Source: Patescibacteria group bacterium
Lineage (GTDB): Bacteria; Patescibacteriota; Patescibacteriia; Patescibacteriales; UBA12465
Direction of reading: 5' to 3'
Assembly (NCBI GenBank): GCA_028705215.1
Contig: JAQWDY010000001.1
Coordinates: 96,785 to 129,524 of the forward strand
Length of the DNA: 32,740 nt
The position numbers and the translations under genes are program-made. Below the pieces are notes generated by a model. The model saw nothing but the letters and a program-made list of their open reading frames with translations. It was not told where the DNA came from and did not search any database. This document shows positions 4,100 to 17,665 of this stretch, one piece after another; positions within the stretch are counted from its first letter, which is position 1, and each line of letters begins with the position of its first letter.

Positions 4100-5269
4100 T
4101 TATTTTGTATCTGTAATAAAAGAAATTGAAAAAAATGCTGGAATAAGAATTATAGCTAGAACTAAAAAGACATAGTTTATTGGTAAAAATAATATACTTA
4201 AGGCGCCAAAGGCAGCGCCGATTACATAACCTAAGGGCCCGGTCATTCGAAACACATTAATTAAACCCAAATCTTTAGCACTTACGTTTTTAAAAAAATA
4301 TGAATCACGAGTGGCCTCAACCATGGCTGCGCCAACGCGACTAAAAAATAATGTAATTGCCCACAAAATTACAGCCGGAGTTTTAATATAGAAAAATAAT
4401 AAAGAAGAGGCAAAAATTATAAGTAGGCCTAAAAGCATTATCTCTTTTTCTCCCAGATATTTATCAGCCATTAAGCCAACGGGTATTTCAAAGATGACAA
4501 AAGGCAAGAGCATAAAAGAAAACATCCAACCTAAATTAGCCCAATCAATACCAAGTGTTTGGTGAAGATATATAGGAATATATAATACCACGCCACTGAA
4601 AAATATATTTAAAGCAGTGGCCGCAATAAAAACGCCTTTCAAATTTTGGTTTTTCCATATTTTTAGAAAACTGACAATAATTTTTTCCTTAGTTTTCTTT
4701 GTTTTATCTTTTAAATTATTTTTTTGTTTTTCAATTACTAAAAATACGGGGATCAATAAAAGGGCTGCTAATAGAAATGGCAAGGAATAACCGCCTTTTT
4801 CAATTAAATTAGCGGAAATTATAGGACCTATAATCCAACCAAGATTATAGAAAGTTAGGTAGATCGTTCTTATTTTTCCGGTGTCCTTATCATCAGAAAC
4901 CTCTTCTAAGTAAATATCGATATTAATCCAAATTAAATTAGAAGTGACTATAAAAAGCATTAAACTAACAGTGGCGGAAATGGGTCCGCTAGTCGCGGCC
5001 AGTGAAAGCAAGCTCGCGCCGAGTAAAATAAGGATATTTTTACTAGTAAAATAATTACCCAATTTATGGATTATATTTGGAAAATTAGCGATCGTTATTA
5101 AGGTGATAAAGTTGCTGATAACAAAAAACAAACTTATCCAACTAAGGCTAATGTGTTTTTCCAAGAAACTAGATTGGATATAAGATATAAGGGCAACTGA
5201 AGAAGCAATTATAAATCCGAGAAAGTATAAAGTCACCCTTCTTGCCTTATTAGCTTTTTTTACTGGCAT
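4100..5269 (-). CDS. Major facilitator superfamily transporter
   Basis: 389 aa, about 12 TM segments, 'FEIPVGLMADKYLGEKEIMLLG' MFS loop motif. Confidence 0.8.
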   Translation of the reverse strand: MPVKKANKARRVTLYFLGFIIASSVALISYIQSSFLEKHISLSWISLFFVISNFITLITIANFPNIIHKLGNYFTSKNILILLGASLLSLAATSGPISATVSLMLFIVTSNLIWINIDIYLEEVSDDKDTGKIRTIYLTFYNLGWIIGPIISANLIEKGGYSLPFLLAALLLIPVFLVIEKQKNNLKDKTKKTKEKIIVSFLKIWKNQNLKGVFIAATALNIFFSGVVLYIPIYLHQTLGIDWANLGWMFSFMLLPFVIFEIPVGLMADKYLGEKEIMLLGLLIIFASSLLFFYIKTPAVILWAITLFFSRVGAAMVEATRDSYFFKNVSAKDLGLINVFRMTGPLGYVIGAAFGALSILFLPINYVFLVLAIILIPAFFSISFITDTK

Positions 5270-6080
5270 GAATGTTAATAATTAAAATAAAAACGGCAAC
5301 AAAAATAAAAAATAGACTAATTATTTGTGGCCATCGTAAATAAAATAGAATTAAGGTATCATCAAGACGAATAAATTCTAAAAAGAAACGTAATATAGAA
5401 TATAATATCACATAAGTGGCGGTTACTACAACATAGGATGACGTTAAGTGGCTGCTTGTTTTTTTATGAAGATTAATTTTCTCTATCATTATAATTAGTA
5501 AGATAAAAATTACAAATGAGCCCAAACTTTCATATAGAAAAGTTGGATGAAAATGAGTGTGGTTTAAGAAATCAAAGGGACGATTTATTATTTCAATTGG
5601 AATTCCCCAAGGTAGACTTGTCGGGAGGCCAAATAATTCTTGATTAAAATAGTTACCAAATCGGCCGATTGCTTGGCCTAAGGCTAGTCCCGGTACAAGC
5701 ATTGCCGTCATTTTAAAAAATGGCATTTTTTCTCTTTTTGAAAAAAAATAAATGACAATTAATCCAGCAATAATTGCTCCATGAATAGCTAGTCCTCCTT
5801 GCCAAATTTTTAATATTTGCGAAGGGTTATCAATATAGTAGGGGAGAAATAGAAGGACGTCATACAAGCGAGCGCCAATTAATCCAAAAATTATTAAATA
5901 AAAACTTAAGTCAATAACTTTTTCTGAATTAAAATTAAAATATTTTTTCCCTAAACGAAGAGTGATAAGAAGTGCTGCTAGAATTCCTAAACTAACAAAA
6001 AGGCCATACCAACGTAAAGCAAAGGGACCAAAAGTTGTAATTATAGGTTGCGGAAAAAAATTATGAAGAAGATTAAACAT
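5250..6080 (-). CDS. lgt: Prolipoprotein diacylglyceryl transferase
   Basis: 'GARLYDVLLFLPYY', 'GGLAIHGAIIAGL', 'LGQAIGRFGNYFNQELFG' Lgt signatures. Confidence 0.93.
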   Translation of the reverse strand: MFNLLHNFFPQPIITTFGPFALRWYGLFVSLGILAALLITLRLGKKYFNFNSEKVIDLSFYLIIFGLIGARLYDVLLFLPYYIDNPSQILKIWQGGLAIHGAIIAGLIVIYFFSKREKMPFFKMTAMLVPGLALGQAIGRFGNYFNQELFGLPTSLPWGIPIEIINRPFDFLNHTHFHPTFLYESLGSFVIFILLIIMIEKINLHKKTSSHLTSSYVVVTATYVILYSILRFFLEFIRLDDTLILFYLRWPQIISLFFIFVAVFILIINIHASKKS

Positions 6081-6086
6081 ATTTAA

Positions 6087-6115
6087 ATTTTAGCAATTAA
6101 CAGCAATTAAAGCAA
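6087..6115 (-). promoter_or_regulatory. Predicted sigma70-type promoter for lgt; TSS would fall at or near ATG (leaderless)
   Basis: Minus strand TTGCTT-N17-TAAAAT followed by TTAAAT then ATG (6080). Confidence 0.5.
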
Positions 6116-6120
6116 AATAA

Positions 6121-6144
6121 AAAACACCTTTTTAGGTGTTTCTT
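6121..6144 (-). terminator. Intrinsic terminator downstream of tRNA-Leu
   Basis: Minus strand AAACACCTAAAAAGGTGTTTTTTATTTT. Confidence 0.75.
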
Positions 6145-6145
6145 G

Positions 6146-6227
6146 TGCGGACGGAGAGACTCGAACTCTCAAGGGTCGCCCCGCTTGGTCCTAAGCCAAG
6201 TGCGTCTACCAGTTTCGCCACGTCCGC
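6146..6227 (-). tRNA. tRNA-Leu (anticodon TAG)
   Basis: Reverse complement GCGGACGTGGCGAAACTGGTAGACGCACTTGGCTTAGGACCAAGCGGGGCGACCCTTGAGAGTTCGAGTCTCTCCGTCCGCA; long variable arm; anticodon TAG. Confidence 0.95.
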
Positions 6228-6310
6228 TTGTTTTATATATTAAATGATATTTTAAAGAAAGTAAAGTTTATGTTATAATTAAAAAATAATAAAGTAATCA
6301 ATCTTCATTT

Positions 6311-8722
6311 ATGGGAAAATATAAATTCATTAAATTTTTTGACGAACTTACTATTAAAGACGTTCCTTATGTGGGTGGTAAAAATGCTTCTTTAGGAGAA
6401 ATGTATCGTTCTTTATCTAGTAAGGGTCTAAGAGTTCCCAATGGTTTTGCCACTACTTCAGAAGCGTATCGTTATTTTTTAGATTCTGCCAAACTTAAAC
6501 CAAAAATCAGAAAAATTTTAAAGGGGCTTGATACTCACAATGTTAAAGATTTAATGAAGCGTGGCAAGGAAGTAAGAGAATTGATTTTAGATACCCCCTT
6601 TCCGGATGATTTTATTTCCGAAATTAAACTTGCTTATAAGGAATTATCAGTCTTCTATAAAAGCAAAAGATTGGATGTTGCGGTTCGTTCAAGTGCGACC
6701 GCTGAAGATTTGCCTGACGCTTCTTTTGCTGGACAGCAAGAAACTTTTTTAAATATTTATGGAGAAAACAATTTATTGAATGCGGTAAAGGGTTGTATTG
6801 CGTCTCTTTTTACTAATCGCGCAATTTCTTATCGAGTTGACAAGAAGTTTAATCATTTTTCTATTGCCTTATCTGTTGGTGTTCAAAAAATGGTTAGAGC
6901 TGATTTGGGCTCATCAGGGGTAATGTTTACAATTGACACAGAGTCAGGTTTTAAAGACGCAGTGCTTATTAATTCTATATATGGATTGGGGGAAAATATA
7001 GTTCAGGGAAAAGTAAACCCTGATGAATTTTATTATTTTAAACCAACTGAGACGATTATATCTAAAAGCATCGGGCAGAAGGCAATTAAAATGGTCTATG
7101 ATTCTAAAGGGAGAAAGCCAGTAAAAAATATAGCAGTAAGTGAAACAGATAGATTTAAATATTCAATTTCTGATAAAGAGGCTATTCAGTTAGCAAAGTG
7201 GGGCGTAATGATAGAAAAGCATTACAAACGACCAATGGATATTGAATGGGCGCTTGATGGCAAGGATAAGAAGCTCTATATTACTCAAGCACGACCCGAG
7301 ACCGTGCAAAGCCAAGTTAATCCTAATGTCATAGAAAGATATAATCTAAAGGAAAAGTCTAAAATTATTTGTTCTGGTCAAAGTGTTGGTAATAAAATAG
7401 GAGCCGGAGTGGCTAATAGAATAATGGGAGTAAAAGATATTCATAAATTTAAGCCTGGTCAGGTCTTAGTTACTGATATGACAGATCCTGATTGGGAACC
7501 AATTATGAAAATCGCTTCAGCTATTGTTACTGATAAGGGAGGAAGAACTTGTCATGCGGCGATAGTATCTCGTGAGCTTGGTATTCCCTGTGTTGTTGGC
7601 GCAAAAAGCGCTTCTAAAAAAATTAAGAGTGGCAAAAGAATAACGGTTGACTGTTCTCAAGGTGAGGTTGGTTATGTTTATGATAAAGAATTACTTTTTT
7701 CTATAAATAAAACAGATATTCTAAATTTAAAAAGGCCAAAGACAAAAATCATGTTAAATATTGGTGAACCTGATAAAGCATTTTTAAACTCTTTTATTCC
7801 CAACGATGGGGTCGGTTTAGCTCGTTTGGAGTTTATTATTAATAATTATATTAAAGTTCATCCTCTCGCACTTGCTAATTATAATAAGTTAACTGATAAA
7901 GGGGCAAAACAAAAGATAGATCGCCTGACTAAAGGTTATAAAAATAAGAAACAATATTTTATTGATCGTCTAGCGCAGGGCATGGGAATCATTGCCGCTG
8001 CCTTTTATCCTAAAGAGGTTATATTTCGTTTAAGTGACTTTAAAAGTAATGAGTATGCTAATTTAATTGGTGGTAGAGAGTTTGAGCCGATAGAGGCTAA
8101 CCCCATGATTGGCTACAGGGGTGCTAGCCGTTATTATTCCAAACTTTTTTTGTCAGCCTTTAAAATGGAATGTCAGGCAATAAAAATTGTAAGAGAAAAA
8201 ATGAAACTAGATAATTTGAAACTGATGGTTCCTTTTTGTCGCACCATAGAAGAGGGTAAAATGATTTTACAAATTATGGAGGAAAATGGCCTTAAACGAG
8301 GTGATAGGGGCTTAGAAATATATGTTATGGCTGAGATTCCAGCTAATATTATTTTAGCGGAACAGTTTTGTAAAATATTTGATGGTTTTTCTATTGGATC
8401 TAATGACTTAACACAGCTGACATTAGGTATAGACCGTGATTCAGGAGGAACTTTAGAAATTTTAGGATTATCTGATGAAAGAAATGAGGCGGTTAAAGAG
8501 TTGATTAAAAAAATTATAGCGGTGGCAAAGAAAAATAAGAAGAAAGTGGGAATTTGTGGCCAAGGACCTAGTGATTTTCCAGAAATAGCATCCTTTTTGG
8601 TTGAAAATAAAATAGATAGTATGTCCTTAACTCCTGATAGTGCGGTTGAGACAACTATGGCAGTTTACAATACTGAGAAAAAGATGAAAAAGGGGAAAAG
8701 TTTGTTAAGCTATTTTTTTTAA
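6311..8722 (+). CDS. ppsA: Phosphoenolpyruvate synthase (pyruvate, water dikinase)
   Basis: 803 aa; N-terminal PPDK/PEP-synthase ATP-grasp 'VRSSATAEDLPDASFAGQQETFLN'; catalytic His 'KGGRTCHAAIVSRELGIPCVVG'; C-terminal 'FSIGSNDLTQLTLGIDRDSG' and 'GICGQGPSDFPE'. Confidence 0.96.
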   Translation: MGKYKFIKFFDELTIKDVPYVGGKNASLGEMYRSLSSKGLRVPNGFATTSEAYRYFLDSAKLKPKIRKILKGLDTHNVKDLMKRGKEVRELILDTPFPDDFISEIKLAYKELSVFYKSKRLDVAVRSSATAEDLPDASFAGQQETFLNIYGENNLLNAVKGCIASLFTNRAISYRVDKKFNHFSIALSVGVQKMVRADLGSSGVMFTIDTESGFKDAVLINSIYGLGENIVQGKVNPDEFYYFKPTETIISKSIGQKAIKMVYDSKGRKPVKNIAVSETDRFKYSISDKEAIQLAKWGVMIEKHYKRPMDIEWALDGKDKKLYITQARPETVQSQVNPNVIERYNLKEKSKIICSGQSVGNKIGAGVANRIMGVKDIHKFKPGQVLVTDMTDPDWEPIMKIASAIVTDKGGRTCHAAIVSRELGIPCVVGAKSASKKIKSGKRITVDCSQGEVGYVYDKELLFSINKTDILNLKRPKTKIMLNIGEPDKAFLNSFIPNDGVGLARLEFIINNYIKVHPLALANYNKLTDKGAKQKIDRLTKGYKNKKQYFIDRLAQGMGIIAAAFYPKEVIFRLSDFKSNEYANLIGGREFEPIEANPMIGYRGASRYYSKLFLSAFKMECQAIKIVREKMKLDNLKLMVPFCRTIEEGKMILQIMEENGLKRGDRGLEIYVMAEIPANIILAEQFCKIFDGFSIGSNDLTQLTLGIDRDSGGTLEILGLSDERNEAVKELIKKIIAVAKKNKKKVGICGQGPSDFPEIASFLVENKIDSMSLTPDSAVETTMAVYNTEKKMKKGKSLLSYFF

Positions 8723-8789: not shown

Positions 8790-9371
8790 TTATTCAATAA
8801 TTTCAATCTTTGCAATTTTAACACCAAACTTTTTTGCATCTTGATAGTCTAACATCCAAATATCAACTCGATCAGTATAACGTTGATTCATACGATCACG
8901 AACAACGAAAACGCGGTCGCCAAATAATTCAGGGATTCTAACCTTGGTACCAAAACGAAGAAAGTTGGCAGCAATGGTATCTTCTATTCCATGTTCACAG
9001 ACATTAAACCCATTGGCTGTTATGCACGGGGTATCATCTGTTTGTCGCGGATCGGAATTATAAGCAGTCATAGTGTAAAAGCCGGTTCTTAAAACCTCCA
9101 CTTCTTTATCTGTGTGAGCAGGAAGAAAAGCTCTCTTTATTGACTCATCCATGGTCTCACTTTTTGTTAATACTTCATTGTTTATCAATGAATCAGTTAT
9201 AACTACTTCATTTTCTAGTAAATCGTTATTTTGCGCAACTGCTTGATTGGCCAGAGTTGGCGCAAAAAAGAGGACAAATTGAAAAATACAAGCAATGATG
9301 ATGTATAATAATAGGCTTTGTTTGCTACTGAGAGGAATAATTTCTTCTCGCAACAATTTCATTTGTTTCAT
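8790..9371 (-). CDS. 3D-domain (MltA/YabE C-terminal-like) cell-wall protein with N-terminal TM/signal
   Basis: 'TAYNSDPRQTDDTPCITANGFNV...IAANFLRFGTKVRIPELFGDRVFVVRDRMNQRYTDRVDIWM' is a typical 3D domain with conserved Asp residues; start moved to ATG at 9371 because the ORF-track TTG (9473) is the -35 box. Confidence 0.85.
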   Translation of the reverse strand: MKQMKLLREEIIPLSSKQSLLLYIIIACIFQFVLFFAPTLANQAVAQNNDLLENEVVITDSLINNEVLTKSETMDESIKRAFLPAHTDKEVEVLRTGFYTMTAYNSDPRQTDDTPCITANGFNVCEHGIEDTIAANFLRFGTKVRIPELFGDRVFVVRDRMNQRYTDRVDIWMLDYQDAKKFGVKIAKIEIIE

Positions 9372-9386
9372 ATAGATTATTTTTTT

Positions 9387-9433
9387 AAATAAAAAATCCC
9401 TAGCATAATGATGATTATCAAGCTTGGGATTTT
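9387..9433 (-). promoter_or_regulatory. Terminator-like hairpin in the 5' leader of the 3D-domain gene (candidate attenuator or 5' stem-loop)
   Basis: Minus strand AAAATCCCaAGCttgATAATcatcATTATGCTaGGGATTTTTTATTT. Confidence 0.65.
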
Positions 9434-9444
9434 CTTGACCAATT

Positions 9445-9473
9445 ATTGTAGCATCTTGTTTAAAAAAAGTCAA
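9445..9473 (-). promoter_or_regulatory. Sigma70-type promoter of 3D-domain gene
   Basis: Minus strand TTGACT-N17-TACAAT. Confidence 0.75.
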
Positions 9474-10336: not shown

Positions 10337-10350
10337 AAGTTAAATTAAAA

Positions 10351-10376
10351 AAAGAGAGTCACTGGTACTCTCTTTT
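10351..10376. terminator. Bidirectional intrinsic terminator between convergent genes
   Basis: AAAGAGAGT-cactggt-ACTCTCTTT with flanking A and T tracts. Confidence 0.85.
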
Positions 10377-10399
10377 CTTTTTGGTGTGTATAAAAATTA

Positions 10400-10813
10400 T
10401 TAACCGCTAGTTGTTATGCCTCCGGTTGGATCTGAGCTAAAAGGCAGTGCATCAAAGACAAAATAAGTAATAGTGTAGGCAGCTAAGACAATAATTAGAC
10501 CAATAATGGCGTTTTTTATAGTTCCTTGTGCTTTTTTAACCACCTCTTCATTACCTCCAGCCGTCATCCATTTAAAACCCGATACTAAAGTTAGGCCTAA
10601 AAAAATTATAGCCAAAAAACCTAAGATTACCTGAATGCCGCGAGCAGCAATTTGGCCTATTTCAACCTTCCCTAAATTAGACGCCAGACCAGTTTCGTTG
10701 GTCATTTTTTCCATTTCCTGAGGATTGCTTACTAACTGTCCCGAAGCTTGGCTGACGGCAATAATGGGGAAGATGAGAAGAGATAATAGCGCCAGTAAGA
10801 AGGATTTCTTCAT
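10400..10813 (-). CDS. VirB2/T4SS_pilin-like small membrane protein (array member 6)
   Basis: Signal peptide; 'SGFKWMTAGGNEEVVKKAQGTIKNAIIGLIIVLAAYTITYFV'. Confidence 0.75.
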   Translation of the reverse strand: MKKSFLLALLSLLIFPIIAVSQASGQLVSNPQEMEKMTNETGLASNLGKVEIGQIAARGIQVILGFLAIIFLGLTLVSGFKWMTAGGNEEVVKKAQGTIKNAIIGLIIVLAAYTITYFVFDALPFSSDPTGGITTSG

Positions 10814-10817
10814 AGTT

Positions 10818-11273
10818 TTATAAAATTAAATTAACGAATATAAAGTTCCAAATAGTCCAAGCGGACAGGGTTATAATTAAGCCAATTACAGCCGCGGTTA
10901 AAGATTTTGTTGCTTTTTTTACCGTCTCTTCGTTACCCTGTGATGTCATCCATCTAAAGCCAGCAATAACTGTTAGAAAAATGAAGATAAGACCAGTAAC
11001 ACTTAATAGGGCATTAATTATAAGGCCAACTATCCTAGGAACAGAAGCGTTGTTTTCATTAGTTGAATAACCACCTTTTTTAGCAATACTTTCCATGCGG
11101 TCAAGAATGTGGTTACTTTTGCTTGACTTAATTTCCTCATCTTCTTCTGAGCTTGAAGTAAAATCTTGAAATTCCACATTATTTTCTACTTGCGCTTTAA
11201 CGTTATTAAATAGTGGTAAAAATAAAAAAACACTGATTCCAATAAGAAGATAAAATTTTAATTTATTTTTCAT
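10818..11273 (-). CDS. VirB2/T4SS_pilin-like small membrane protein (array member 5)
   Basis: Signal peptide; 'AGFRWMTSQGNEETVKKATKSLTAAVIGLIITLSAWTIWNFI'. Confidence 0.75.
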   Translation of the reverse strand: MKNKLKFYLLIGISVFLFLPLFNNVKAQVENNVEFQDFTSSSEEDEEIKSSKSNHILDRMESIAKKGGYSTNENNASVPRIVGLIINALLSVTGLIFIFLTVIAGFRWMTSQGNEETVKKATKSLTAAVIGLIITLSAWTIWNFIFVNLIL

Positions 11274-11281
11274 ATTTTTAA

Positions 11282-11683
11282 TTAATCGATTACGTTGGCT
11301 AATAATTCCGAAACCCAGGAGCTAAGAGCGTAGGCGGCTAAAACTATAACAAGCCCAATGCTTAAAGATGCTATTTGTTTTTGTGATTTTTTAACCTTTT
11401 CTTCATTGCCATTGGCTCGCATCCAGTTGTTGCCCGCTAAAAACATGAGTATTAGAAATATTGTGCCCAAAACCCCCATTACAGCTTTAATGACTGTTGC
11501 TATTATATCGTCTAGACTTCTTTGCGTATCAATATTAGCTTGAGCAACAATTTCATTTATGTTTTCATTATACTGGTTTTTCTTTTCTGGACTTAAAAAA
11601 TCAGCTTGAGTTGGATTAACAAAAACAAAGCTCATAACAAGTAATGAAAAGATCAAACTTTTTGTTGCAAGTCCCTTTTTCAT
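11282..11683 (-). CDS. VirB2/T4SS_pilin-like small membrane protein (array member 4)
   Basis: Signal peptide; 'AGNNWMRANGNEEKVKKSQKQIASLSIGLVIVLAAYALSSWV'. Confidence 0.75.
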   Translation of the reverse strand: MKKGLATKSLIFSLLVMSFVFVNPTQADFLSPEKKNQYNENINEIVAQANIDTQRSLDDIIATVIKAVMGVLGTIFLILMFLAGNNWMRANGNEEKVKKSQKQIASLSIGLVIVLAAYALSSWVSELLANVID

Positions 11684-11686
11684 ATT

Positions 11687-12088
11687 TTAAGTAAAATAAG
11701 AAATGATAAAATAAGAAATGGCATAAGCAGCAAGGGTAATAATTAAACCAATTATAGCATTAAGCAAACCGTCTTTTGCTTTTTCAACTTTATTTTCATT
11801 GCCTTGCGCTATCATCCATTTAAAGCCGCTAAAAATTATTAAACCAAAAAATATTACTCCGACTAGGCCCAGGGCTGAATAAATAATAGTGCCAATAATG
11901 CTATCTACCGTTTCTGCACTTTCTCCGGTGGCAAAGCCCGCTTTCTCACTAGTAGTTTTAAGGCCGCTATCATTATTGAAATTAAAGCTTTGTGCACTGG
12001 CAATGGTTAAAGGAAGTAGAGTAAAAAGAAAAATACCAAAAGAAAAAGCTAAGGCAATAATATCTTTTTTTCTCAAAAACATAAACAT
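11687..12088 (-). CDS. VirB2/T4SS_pilin-like small membrane protein (array member 3)
   Basis: 'SGFKWMIAQGNENKVEKAKDGLLNAIIGLIITLAAYAISYFI'; start moved from 12148 to MFMFLRKKD at 12088, removing the overlap with the upstream gene. Confidence 0.75.
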   Translation of the reverse strand: MFMFLRKKDIIALAFSFGIFLFTLLPLTIASAQSFNFNNDSGLKTTSEKAGFATGESAETVDSIIGTIIYSALGLVGVIFFGLIIFSGFKWMIAQGNENKVEKAKDGLLNAIIGLIITLAAYAISYFIISYFT

Positions 12089-12092
12089 ACTG

Positions 12093-12485
12093 TTATTGTA
12101 GTATCTCGCTACCAATAAATGAGGTGATGGCGTAGGCAGCAAAAACAATTATTAATCCAATAATGCCGTTTATTAACAAATTTCTAGCTTTAGTTACCTG
12201 AGAGTCGTTGCCTTGAGCTGTCATCCACAAAATACCAGCATATATCATCAGAATTAAAAATAGAACGCCGACAAAGGATAAAACGGTGCCAATTATTTGC
12301 CCAGCCTTAGTTTGTAGAAAATTATCATAATTTGCGCCAGTTTGTGATTTAAAAGCACCTACTTCGCCCGCGGTTTCATTTAAACCATAGGAGCCGGTTT
12401 GGGCCAACGATTTGCTAACAAAAAAAGCGCTATTTAAGAGAAATATACCTATAATTAACAATAATATAGTTTTTTTTATTTTCAT
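12093..12485 (-). CDS. VirB2/T4SS_pilin-like small membrane protein (array member 2)
   Basis: Signal peptide; 'AGILWMTAQGNDSQVTKARNLLINGIIGLIIVFAAYAITSFI'. Confidence 0.75.
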   Translation of the reverse strand: MKIKKTILLLIIGIFLLNSAFFVSKSLAQTGSYGLNETAGEVGAFKSQTGANYDNFLQTKAGQIIGTVLSFVGVLFLILMIYAGILWMTAQGNDSQVTKARNLLINGIIGLIIVFAAYAITSFIGSEILQ

Positions 12486-12500
12486 AAAAATAATTTACAC

Positions 12501-12566
12501 TGGTTTGGATACAAAAAATTTGCACCCAAGCCAGTGATTCCCAATTTTACTGAGAATCACATATTA
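12501..12566 (-). promoter_or_regulatory. Two abutting stem-loops in the intercistronic region between array members 1 and 2
   Basis: Minus strand GTGATTC-tcagtaaaattgg-GAATCAC overlapping CACTGGCTTGG-gtgcaaattttttgtat-CCAAACCAGTG. Confidence 0.6.
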
Positions 12567-12637
12567 TTTATTATTATTTATAATATATAAATAATTTTCA
12601 GCAGTAATCTTTTTTTCTTACGTTAAGGAAATGGGGA

Positions 12638-13024
12638 TTAGACACCACTGGTAGCATTGTAAATAGCATTAATAACGAAGGTAGAAATCGCCCAGGCTGC
12701 TAAAATAATAACCAAACCAATAACGCCAGCTCCTAATAATTTTTGAGCCTCAGACACCTTATCTTCATTACCGCCAGCTGTCATCCATTTAAAGCCACCC
12801 ATTAAGATGATAGCTACAGCAATTACTCCCAAGAAACCAAGAACAACGTTGATAATACTACCAACAATTTCTCTTGGATCACGGTTTGATAAAGCATTGT
12901 CTAGACCATTGTTGACCTGATTTAAACCGAAATCAGCTTGAGCTGATACCTGTATAGCAAATACAGGGGTTAGCAATAAGGCAACGATAGCAAGAGACAA
13001 TAAGTGTTTGTAAATTTTTTTCAT
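12638..13024 (-). CDS. VirB2/T4SS_pilin-like small membrane protein (array member 1, promoter-proximal)
   Basis: Signal peptide; 'GGFKWMTAGGNEDKVSEAQKLLGAGVIGLVIILAAWAISTFV'; very strong SD AAAGGAGGTGA. Confidence 0.8.
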   Translation of the reverse strand: MKKIYKHLLSLAIVALLLTPVFAIQVSAQADFGLNQVNNGLDNALSNRDPREIVGSIINVVLGFLGVIAVAIILMGGFKWMTAGGNEDKVSEAQKLLGAGVIGLVIILAAWAISTFVINAIYNATSGV

Positions 13025-13072
13025 ATTTTCACCTCCTTTCTTAAGTAATAATATTCCTTTTTTATATCTTTA

Positions 13073-17236: not shown

Positions 17237-17665
17237 TTATTGTTTTAATTCCACTTCTAAGGAATCCTTTTCAGTCGTATTTGCGCCTAAAGAGGTAATA
17301 ACAAAGCTAATAATTAACCAGCTTGAAAAGACAATGATTAAGCCAACTACTGCTGATATAATAACTTGTTTTGCTCTTTGCACCTTTTCTTTTGATCCAG
17401 CAGAAAGCATAAACATGACTCCACCAATAACAAAAACAAGTAGGGAGAGGGAGCCTACTAGACCAAGGATTATGTCGGATATGTTAACTGCCATGTTAAC
17501 AATATCATTGACTCTGTAATTGCCACAATAGGTAGAGTCTCCATACTCACAATTTTTGCCGGTAGCATCTATTAACAAAGATTGGCCGTGGCTGATAGCG
17601 GGCACAGATACGAAGGCGAGAGAGAAAACTAAAATAATAAATATCTTTTTTGTTATATTTTTCAT
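17237..17665 (-). CDS. VirB2/T4SS_pilin-like small membrane protein (divergent seventh paralog)
   Basis: Signal peptide; 'GGVMFMLSAGSKEKVQRAKQVIISAVVGLIIVFSSWLIISFV'. Confidence 0.7.
   Translation of the reverse strand: MKNITKKIFIILVFSLAFVSVPAISHGQSLLIDATGKNCEYGDSTYCGNYRVNDIVNMAVNISDIILGLVGSLSLLVFVIGGVMFMLSAGSKEKVQRAKQVIISAVVGLIIVFSSWLIISFVITSLGANTTEKDSLEVELKQ

What the first reader, a model, noticed from the sequence alone, without database searches (positions are those of the whole stretch)
10400..13024. Tandem array of six divergent VirB2/T4SS-pilin-like paralogs without visible secretion machinery
Seen: six consecutive minus-strand ORFs (about 130-150 aa) each have a signal peptide, a variable post-signal segment, a TM, a short loop with the signature G(F/I/N)xWM(T/I/R)AxGNExxVxKA and a second TM ending GLIIxLAAYAI. 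Five are nearly gap-free; the first is separated and has a very strong SD. Knowledge: this layout fits VirB2/TrbC- or T4SS_pilin-type subunits common in CPR. Inference: the variable ectodomain next to a constant membrane core suggests a heteromeric surface filament, pore, or diversified pilin/holin set rather than redundant copies. No VirB4/VirB6/VirD4 gene is in the window.
Basis: partly seen in the sequence, partly recalled or inferred. Interest (0 to 1): 0.75.

Follow-up and report, generated by a model that had tools for sequence, protein, structure and literature searches.

The report
Pilin array with conserved RNA hairpins
A tiny bacterium of the Falkowbacteria type carries six neighbouring genes for related but distinct pilus subunits, kept in the same order in its relatives, and a conserved folded RNA after the first gene probably lets the cell make far more of that subunit than of the other five.

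Summary
The array is real: all six ORFs pass the Pfam T4SS_pilin cut-off, and a missed seventh lies at 17237-17665. Multi-gene VirB2-like arrays in Patescibacteria are already published (PMC12102498), including an essential six-pilin array in a saccharibacterium, so the array alone is a new member of a known kind. "Without machinery" holds only for the window: PrgI and VirB4 lie on another contig; no coupling protein passes its cut-off.

New here: (1) nine of ten well-assembled family genomes keep exactly six genes; positions are orthologous (9 label changes on the tree, minimum 6, shuffled 44) and under purifying selection, so they are fixed subunits, not antigenic variants. (2) Gene 1 has a near-perfect Shine-Dalgarno sequence, the only such site in the genome; genes 2-6 have none. 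(3) Between genes 1 and 2 lies an uncatalogued two-hairpin RNA (23 of 26 pairs compensated, no Rfam match), found in 36 of 39 family genomes. (4) Gene-1-type pilin domains also begin two giant Ig-domain proteins. Best model: gene 1 is the major pilin, genes 2-6 are minor subunits, the RNA sets the ratio, the giants are adhesins. Function is untested.

The parts
12638..13024 (-). A1, 128-aa T4SS_pilin, proposed major subunit
   Evidence: PF18895 34.9 bits; one clade (100/99) from 11 of 11 genomes; SD duplex -22.2 kcal/mol
13022..13040 (-). near-perfect Shine-Dalgarno plus start codon of A1, GAAAGGAGGTGAAAATATG
   Evidence: only match of GAAAGGNGGTGA-N2-8-ATG in the 746-kb genome; none of 25 other window genes below -6.0 kcal/mol
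12489..12560 (-). two-hairpin structured RNA in the A1-A2 gap
   Evidence: 26 pairs, 23 with double changes, 91.8% of cells paired against 71.9% shuffled; model R1 72.5 bits; no Rfam match; only strong hit in own genome
12093..12485 (-). A2, 130-aa T4SS_pilin
   Evidence: PF18895 33.0 bits; best hit at the same position 109/110; no SD
11687..12088 (-). A3, T4SS_pilin (ORF listed to 12148; likely ATG at 12088, 133 aa)
   Evidence: PF18895 42.5 bits; start choice
11282..11683 (-). A4, 133-aa T4SS_pilin, the most divergent position
   Evidence: PF18895 37.9 bits; core identity 46% within the position
10818..11273 (-). A5, 151-aa T4SS_pilin
   Evidence: PF18895 39.9 bits
10400..10813 (-). A6, 137-aa T4SS_pilin
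   Evidence: PF18895 39.7 bits; relatives in 78 loci
10347..10379 (-). terminator-like hairpin with U-tract after A6
   Evidence: 13 pairs, pattern scan only
17237..17665 (-). S, solitary seventh T4SS_pilin about 4.2 kb from the array, next to a solute-binding protein gene
   Evidence: PF18895 39.3 bits; a solitary pilin lies near the array in most related genomes

Best explanation
The locus encodes one set of non-interchangeable VirB2-like pilins for the chromosomal, monoderm-type T4SS of a Falkowbacteria-like patescibacterium. Shown by sequence: six T4SS_pilin genes in a fixed order; gene 1 with a uniquely strong ribosome-binding site; a covarying two-hairpin RNA directly after gene 1; genes 2-6 nearly gap-free, without SD, with a terminator-like hairpin at the end. 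Inferred: all six are co-transcribed, and the two hairpins mark the 3' end of a stable processed gene-1 mRNA (selective RNA processing and stabilisation), so that gene 1 (major pilin) is made in large excess over genes 2-6 (minor or assembly subunits). Inferred: the subunits form a short pilus or channel extension driven by the unlinked VirB4/PrgI machinery, and the two giant proteins that begin with a gene-1-type pilin domain are built into the same structure as tip or surface adhesins facing the partner cell.
For: PF18895 hits for all six. Ten family genomes repeat the set: array of six (seven in one), a solitary pilin, two giant fusions, an extended pair, single genes. Best hits fall at the same position: A1 110/110, A2 109/110, A3 89, A5 85, A6 94 of 110; tree: 9 label changes, minimum 6, shuffled 44.1. 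Purifying selection against L043, omega 0.06-0.20. A1 SD -17.4 to -22.2 kcal/mol; medians of A2-A6 from -3.9 to +0.1; only such site in own genome, one of 1-4 per genome in ten relatives with A1 always among them. RNA: 23 of 26 pairs with compensatory changes; 36 of 39 family genomes; downstream of an A1-type gene in all 26 loci inspected. Second hairpin not followed by a terminator-like T-tract. Giants' pilin domains group with A1 (support 98) and carry Big_5/TIG/fn3. PrgI and VirB4 in the genome. Precedents: stem-loops set cellulosome stoichiometry (PMC4423207); papBA pilin mRNA decay (PMC5927463); pilin array essential in S. epibionticum (PMC10633639).
Against: No expression, mass-spectrometry or microscopy data. 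A2-A6 lacking an SD is normal for this genome (median -0.8 kcal/mol), so only A1 is exceptional. The array is far from virB4 in single-contig genomes (G029: 759 against 533 kb), so the link to the T4SS is by family only. No coupling protein over cut-off. The A1 model finds no significant PDB match. Position 4 is only weakly orthologous by best hit (32/110).
Confidence: 0.5

Rival explanations
1. Antigenic or host-range variation: tandem pilin copies that diversify and turn over so the surface pilus varies between strains (the reading offered in PMC12102498 by analogy with Bartonella and Anaplasma).
For: Low identity between paralogs (32-46% in own array); N-terminal segments less conserved than the core; array size varies in more distant families.
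Against: Within the family the number and order of genes are nearly fixed and positions are orthologous; omega 0.06-0.20 with no marked excess in the ectodomain; A1 ectodomain identical to L043.
Confidence: 0.1
2. The two-hairpin RNA is not a stoichiometry element but a regulated attenuator or a protein- or ligand-binding translational switch that controls A2-A6 in response to a signal such as host contact.
For: Strong covariation, single copy per genome, ends 0-20 nt before the A2 start in many genomes; the CAC between the hairpins can pair with either neighbour (sequence).
Against: The second hairpin lacks a terminator-like U-tract; loops are variable and no conserved ligand-pocket-like sequence is seen.
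Confidence: 0.25
3. The proteins are not pilins but a heteromeric membrane pore, holin-like set or channel lining that merely shares the two-helix hairpin fold.
For: No significant structural match to a solved pilus, best weak match an ATP synthase c-subunit hairpin; array unlinked to virB4.
Against: All six over the T4SS_pilin cut-off; a giant paralogue also matches TrbC/VirB2 at E 1.3e-4, below its cut-off; homologous arrays lie in or near T4SS loci in other Patescibacteria.
Confidence: 0.12
4. Redundant tandem duplicates with no division of labour.
For: Common domain and tandem layout.
Against: Separate orthologous lineages held in order across at least four genera, each under constraint.
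Confidence: 0.03

Closest known systems
VirB2 pilin arrays of Patescibacteria (PMC12102498, 2025)
   Same: Tandem sequence-divergent PF18895/VirB2-like genes, 2-11 per array, in CPR genomes
   Different: That paper suggests diversification for host range; here the family keeps six orthologous positions. A search of its text for hairpin, Shine-Dalgarno and Ig-like found none. Many of its pilin genes lie near virB4; this array does not.
Essential six-pilin array in the T4SS locus of Southlakia epibionticum (PMC10633639; reviewed in PMC12857230)
   Same: Six divergent VirB2-like pilins; monoderm-type T4SS; no recognisable coupling protein by the original study
   Different: Located inside the T4SS cluster; a different class (Saccharimonadia); RNA element not examined there
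Selective RNA processing and stabilisation in operons (cellulosome cip-cel, PMC4423207; papBA, PMC5927463)
   Same: Intergenic stem-loop next to the gene of an abundant subunit of a multi-subunit surface complex
   Different: Here only inferred; two tandem covarying hairpins, a sequence family with no Rfam match
VirB2/TrbC conjugative pilins (PF04956)
   Same: Signal peptide, two membrane helices, short polar loop
   Different: The six array proteins do not match PF04956 at E 0.01; only a giant paralogue does, below the cut-off

Membership tests
T4SS_pilin (PF18895) | match above the curated cut-off of 26.6 bits | tested here: met
   33.0-42.5 bits for all six and 39.3 for the seventh
TrbC/VirB2 pilin (PF04956) | match above the curated cut-off | tested here: not met
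   no hit at E 0.01 for the array proteins; giant paralogue 22.5 bits against cut-off 27.9
VirB2-like pilin | signal peptide and two hydrophobic helices joined by a short polar loop | tested here: met
   sequence and A1 model, helices 50-82 and 87-126 with pLDDT mostly about 90
VirB2-like pilin | structural similarity to a solved T4SS pilus subunit | tested here: inconclusive
   no PDB match at E 0.001; a two-helix hairpin is a weak target for this test
VirB2-like pilin | assembly into a helical filament | not testable with these tools
   needs microscopy
Monoderm-type T4SS of Patescibacteria | VirB4 and PrgI/VirB3 encoded in the genome | tested here: met
   PrgI 32.5 bits, P-loop_TraG 95.7 bits, AAA_10 38.7 bits on contig C12
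Monoderm-type T4SS of Patescibacteria | VirB6-like polytopic protein | tested here: inconclusive
   827-aa multi-TM protein upstream of prgI, no Pfam match
Conjugative T4SS | VirD4 coupling protein | tested here: not met
   only a sub-cut-off hit, 19.5 against 20.1 bits
Conjugative T4SS | relaxase | not tested
   no relaxase search was made
Known Rfam RNA family | match in Rfam 15 | tested here: not met
   no match at E 1 for 12400-12750
Selective RNA processing and stabilisation element | processed transcript end at the stem-loop and higher abundance of the upstream gene | not testable with these tools
   needs transcript data

The most novel reading that the evidence does not exclude
The A1-A2 element is a new family of structured RNA whose job is to fix the ratio of a major T4SS pilin to five minor pilins in a heteromeric, host-contacting filament, tipped or decorated by giant Ig-domain proteins that carry the same pilin domain. 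That would be a fixed multi-pilin T4SS pilus with adhesin-fused pilins, unlike the single-pilin conjugative pili known so far.
Probability: 0.35. Interest if true: 0.8.

Novelty: new variant of a known kind. Interest (0 to 1): 0.6.

Why it matters
The T4SS of Patescibacteria is essential in the one species tested, yet its role is unknown and its multiple pilins are explained only as diversification. A fixed six-subunit order, one subunit with the genome's strongest ribosome-binding site, a conserved RNA and giant pilin-fused surface proteins turn the question into specific predictions: which subunit is the shaft, which are minor, and what touches the host. The RNA is also a strongly supported structured element that Rfam does not hold.

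Tried and rejected
Foldseek of the A1 model against PDB: nothing at E 0.001. Terminator reading of the A1-A2 hairpins rejected: no U-tract, not flagged by the scan. Antigenic variation rejected within this family. A check of phylum-level loci found strong SDs on some pilins in other families and classes but no clear two-hairpin element, so the RNA looks restricted to the order (57 of 111 genomes); about half those loci could not be read in that check because of orientation. One tree attempt failed for unequal row lengths and was redone. Literature searches for this RNA found nothing specific.

Full report
WHAT IS THERE. Six minus-strand ORFs occupy 10400-13024. All exceed the Pfam T4SS_pilin cut-off. 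I call them A1 (12638-13024, first in reading direction) to A6 (10400-10813). A seventh pilin lies at 17237-17665, behind a solute-binding protein gene. The nearest named relatives are Candidatus Falkowbacteria and unclassified Patescibacteria; the closest locus, L043, is 86% identical in A6. The window lies in a 746-kb, 99%-complete genome.

THE REST OF THE GENOME. The genome holds 13 T4SS_pilin places: six in the array, the solitary seventh, two small single genes, two pilin domains in 342/447-aa ORFs, and two at the N-termini of adjacent 888- and 1917-aa ORFs on contig C27. These giants carry Big_5, TIG and fn3 domains after the pilin domain. The secretion core is present but elsewhere: contig C12 encodes PrgI (VirB3), a TraC-like N-terminal part, a VirB4 P-loop ATPase and an 827-aa polytopic protein that may be VirB6. 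No coupling protein passes the cut-off. In the single-contig relatives the array is far from virB4 (G029: 759 against 533 kb; G018: 702 against 131 kb).

A FIXED SET OF SUBUNITS. All 39 family genomes searched have T4SS_pilin matches. In ten of the best assembled, the array has exactly six genes (seven in G007) with the same layout. A protein's best hit in another genome is nearly always at the same position: A1 110/110, A2 109/110, A3 89, A5 85, A6 94 of 110; A4 is weaker, 32. On a tree of 67 array pilins the position labels need 9 changes, where 6 is the least possible and shuffled labels need 44. Most close loci from a separate collection also read A1-A2-A3-A4-A5-A6 in order (some are the same genomes). 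More distant lineages (Magasanikbacteria, Uhrbacteria and others) have four to about fourteen pilins, usually with an A1-type gene recognisable. Against L043, omega is 0.06-0.20 for each gene, with no marked excess in the N-terminal segments; dS is high for several genes, so exact values are rough. These are therefore old, constrained, separate subunits, not a recent amplification and not a diversifying antigen set.

ONE SUBUNIT STANDS OUT. A1 has AAGAAAGGAGGTGAAAATATG upstream. The predicted duplex with a generic anti-SD is -22.2 kcal/mol in the window and -17.4 or stronger in all ten arrays tested; medians for A2-A6 lie between -3.9 and +0.1. None of 25 other window genes is below -6.0. The pattern GAAAGGNGGTGA-N2-8-ATG occurs once in the genome, at A1. 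In ten relatives a slightly looser pattern occurs one to four times per genome, always including A1. A1 is also the slowest-evolving member (core identity 75%). Several pilins in other families and classes have equally strong SDs.

A STRUCTURED RNA AFTER THE FIRST GENE. The A1-A2 gap (152 nt here, about 80-150 nt in most relatives; the gaps between A2 and A6 are mostly near zero) folds into two adjacent hairpins at 12489-12560. On 25 sequences RNAalifold predicts 26 pairs. Of these, 23 have compensatory double changes; 91.8% of cells pair, against 71.9% in shuffles and 38-47% when partners are slid. The structure was derived from these same sequences, which favours it in the paired-cell comparison, but 144 cells with a change on both sides against 40 in shuffles (0 of 500 as high) is far beyond that. 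There is no Rfam match. A covariance model finds the window element at 72.5 bits and no other convincing site in the genome, elements in 36 of 39 family genomes and 57 of 111 order genomes, and an A1-type gene directly upstream in all 26 loci inspected. The second hairpin is not followed by a terminator-like T-tract, whereas a terminator-like hairpin does follow A6.

MECHANISM. Shown: gene order, SD contrast, RNA structure, orthology. Inferred: one transcript, processed or protected at the hairpins so that A1 mRNA accumulates, reinforced by A1's SD; A1 is the major pilin and A2-A6 are minor. Stem-loops at intergenic processing sites set subunit ratios in the cellulosome operon (PMC4423207), and the E. 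coli papBA pilin operon uses differential mRNA decay (PMC5927463). The giants' pilin domains form one group with A1 (support 98), so they could take A1's place at an end or along the filament and present their Ig-like parts. Class relatives have the same kind of pair, one ORF of about 590-690 aa and one of 2478 to 14266 aa.

COMPARISON WITH THE KNOWN. VirB2 arrays in Patescibacteria are published: 441 arrays of 2-11 genes, mean identity 25%, most abundant in Microgenomatia and Saccharimonadia (PMC12102498). The pilin array of S. epibionticum is essential (PMC10633639) and has six divergent pilins (PMC12857230). So the array alone is a new member of a known kind. The fixed orthologous order, the RNA, the SD contrast and the giant A1-type fusions are not in the passages I could search; supplements were not available. 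I therefore rate the whole a new variant of a known kind.

LIMITS.

Noticed in passing
L010:7881-10547 and L010:10580-16333 (genome contig C27): Two adjacent genes encode T4SS_pilin domains fused to about 770 and 1800 further residues with Big_5, TIG and fn3 domains; the pair recurs in the related genomes examined. A third large secreted protein follows.
   Followed up: partly
G192:C1:501316 (no locus fetched): A class relative has a 14,266-aa open frame containing an A1-type pilin domain; other class relatives have 2478-3766-aa versions.
   Followed up: no
window 17237-17665: A seventh T4SS_pilin gene directly downstream of a solute-binding protein gene and upstream of an HTH_25 (RodZ-like) gene; a solitary pilin lies near the array in most relatives.
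   Followed up: partly
L011:5097-7474 (genome contig C18): Two tandem pilin-containing ORFs (342 and 447 aa) are almost identical over the first 125 residues but differ in length and C-terminus, which suggests recent duplication or gene conversion.
   Followed up: no
L131 (relative G007), 4306-7615: One relative has a seven-gene array; its genes 6 and 7 match positions 5 and 6 of the others, so one extra gene sits in the middle.
   Followed up: partly
window 8790-9473: Secreted protein whose C-terminal half resembles a 3D/RlpA-type domain from memory; no Pfam match at E 0.01.
   Followed up: no
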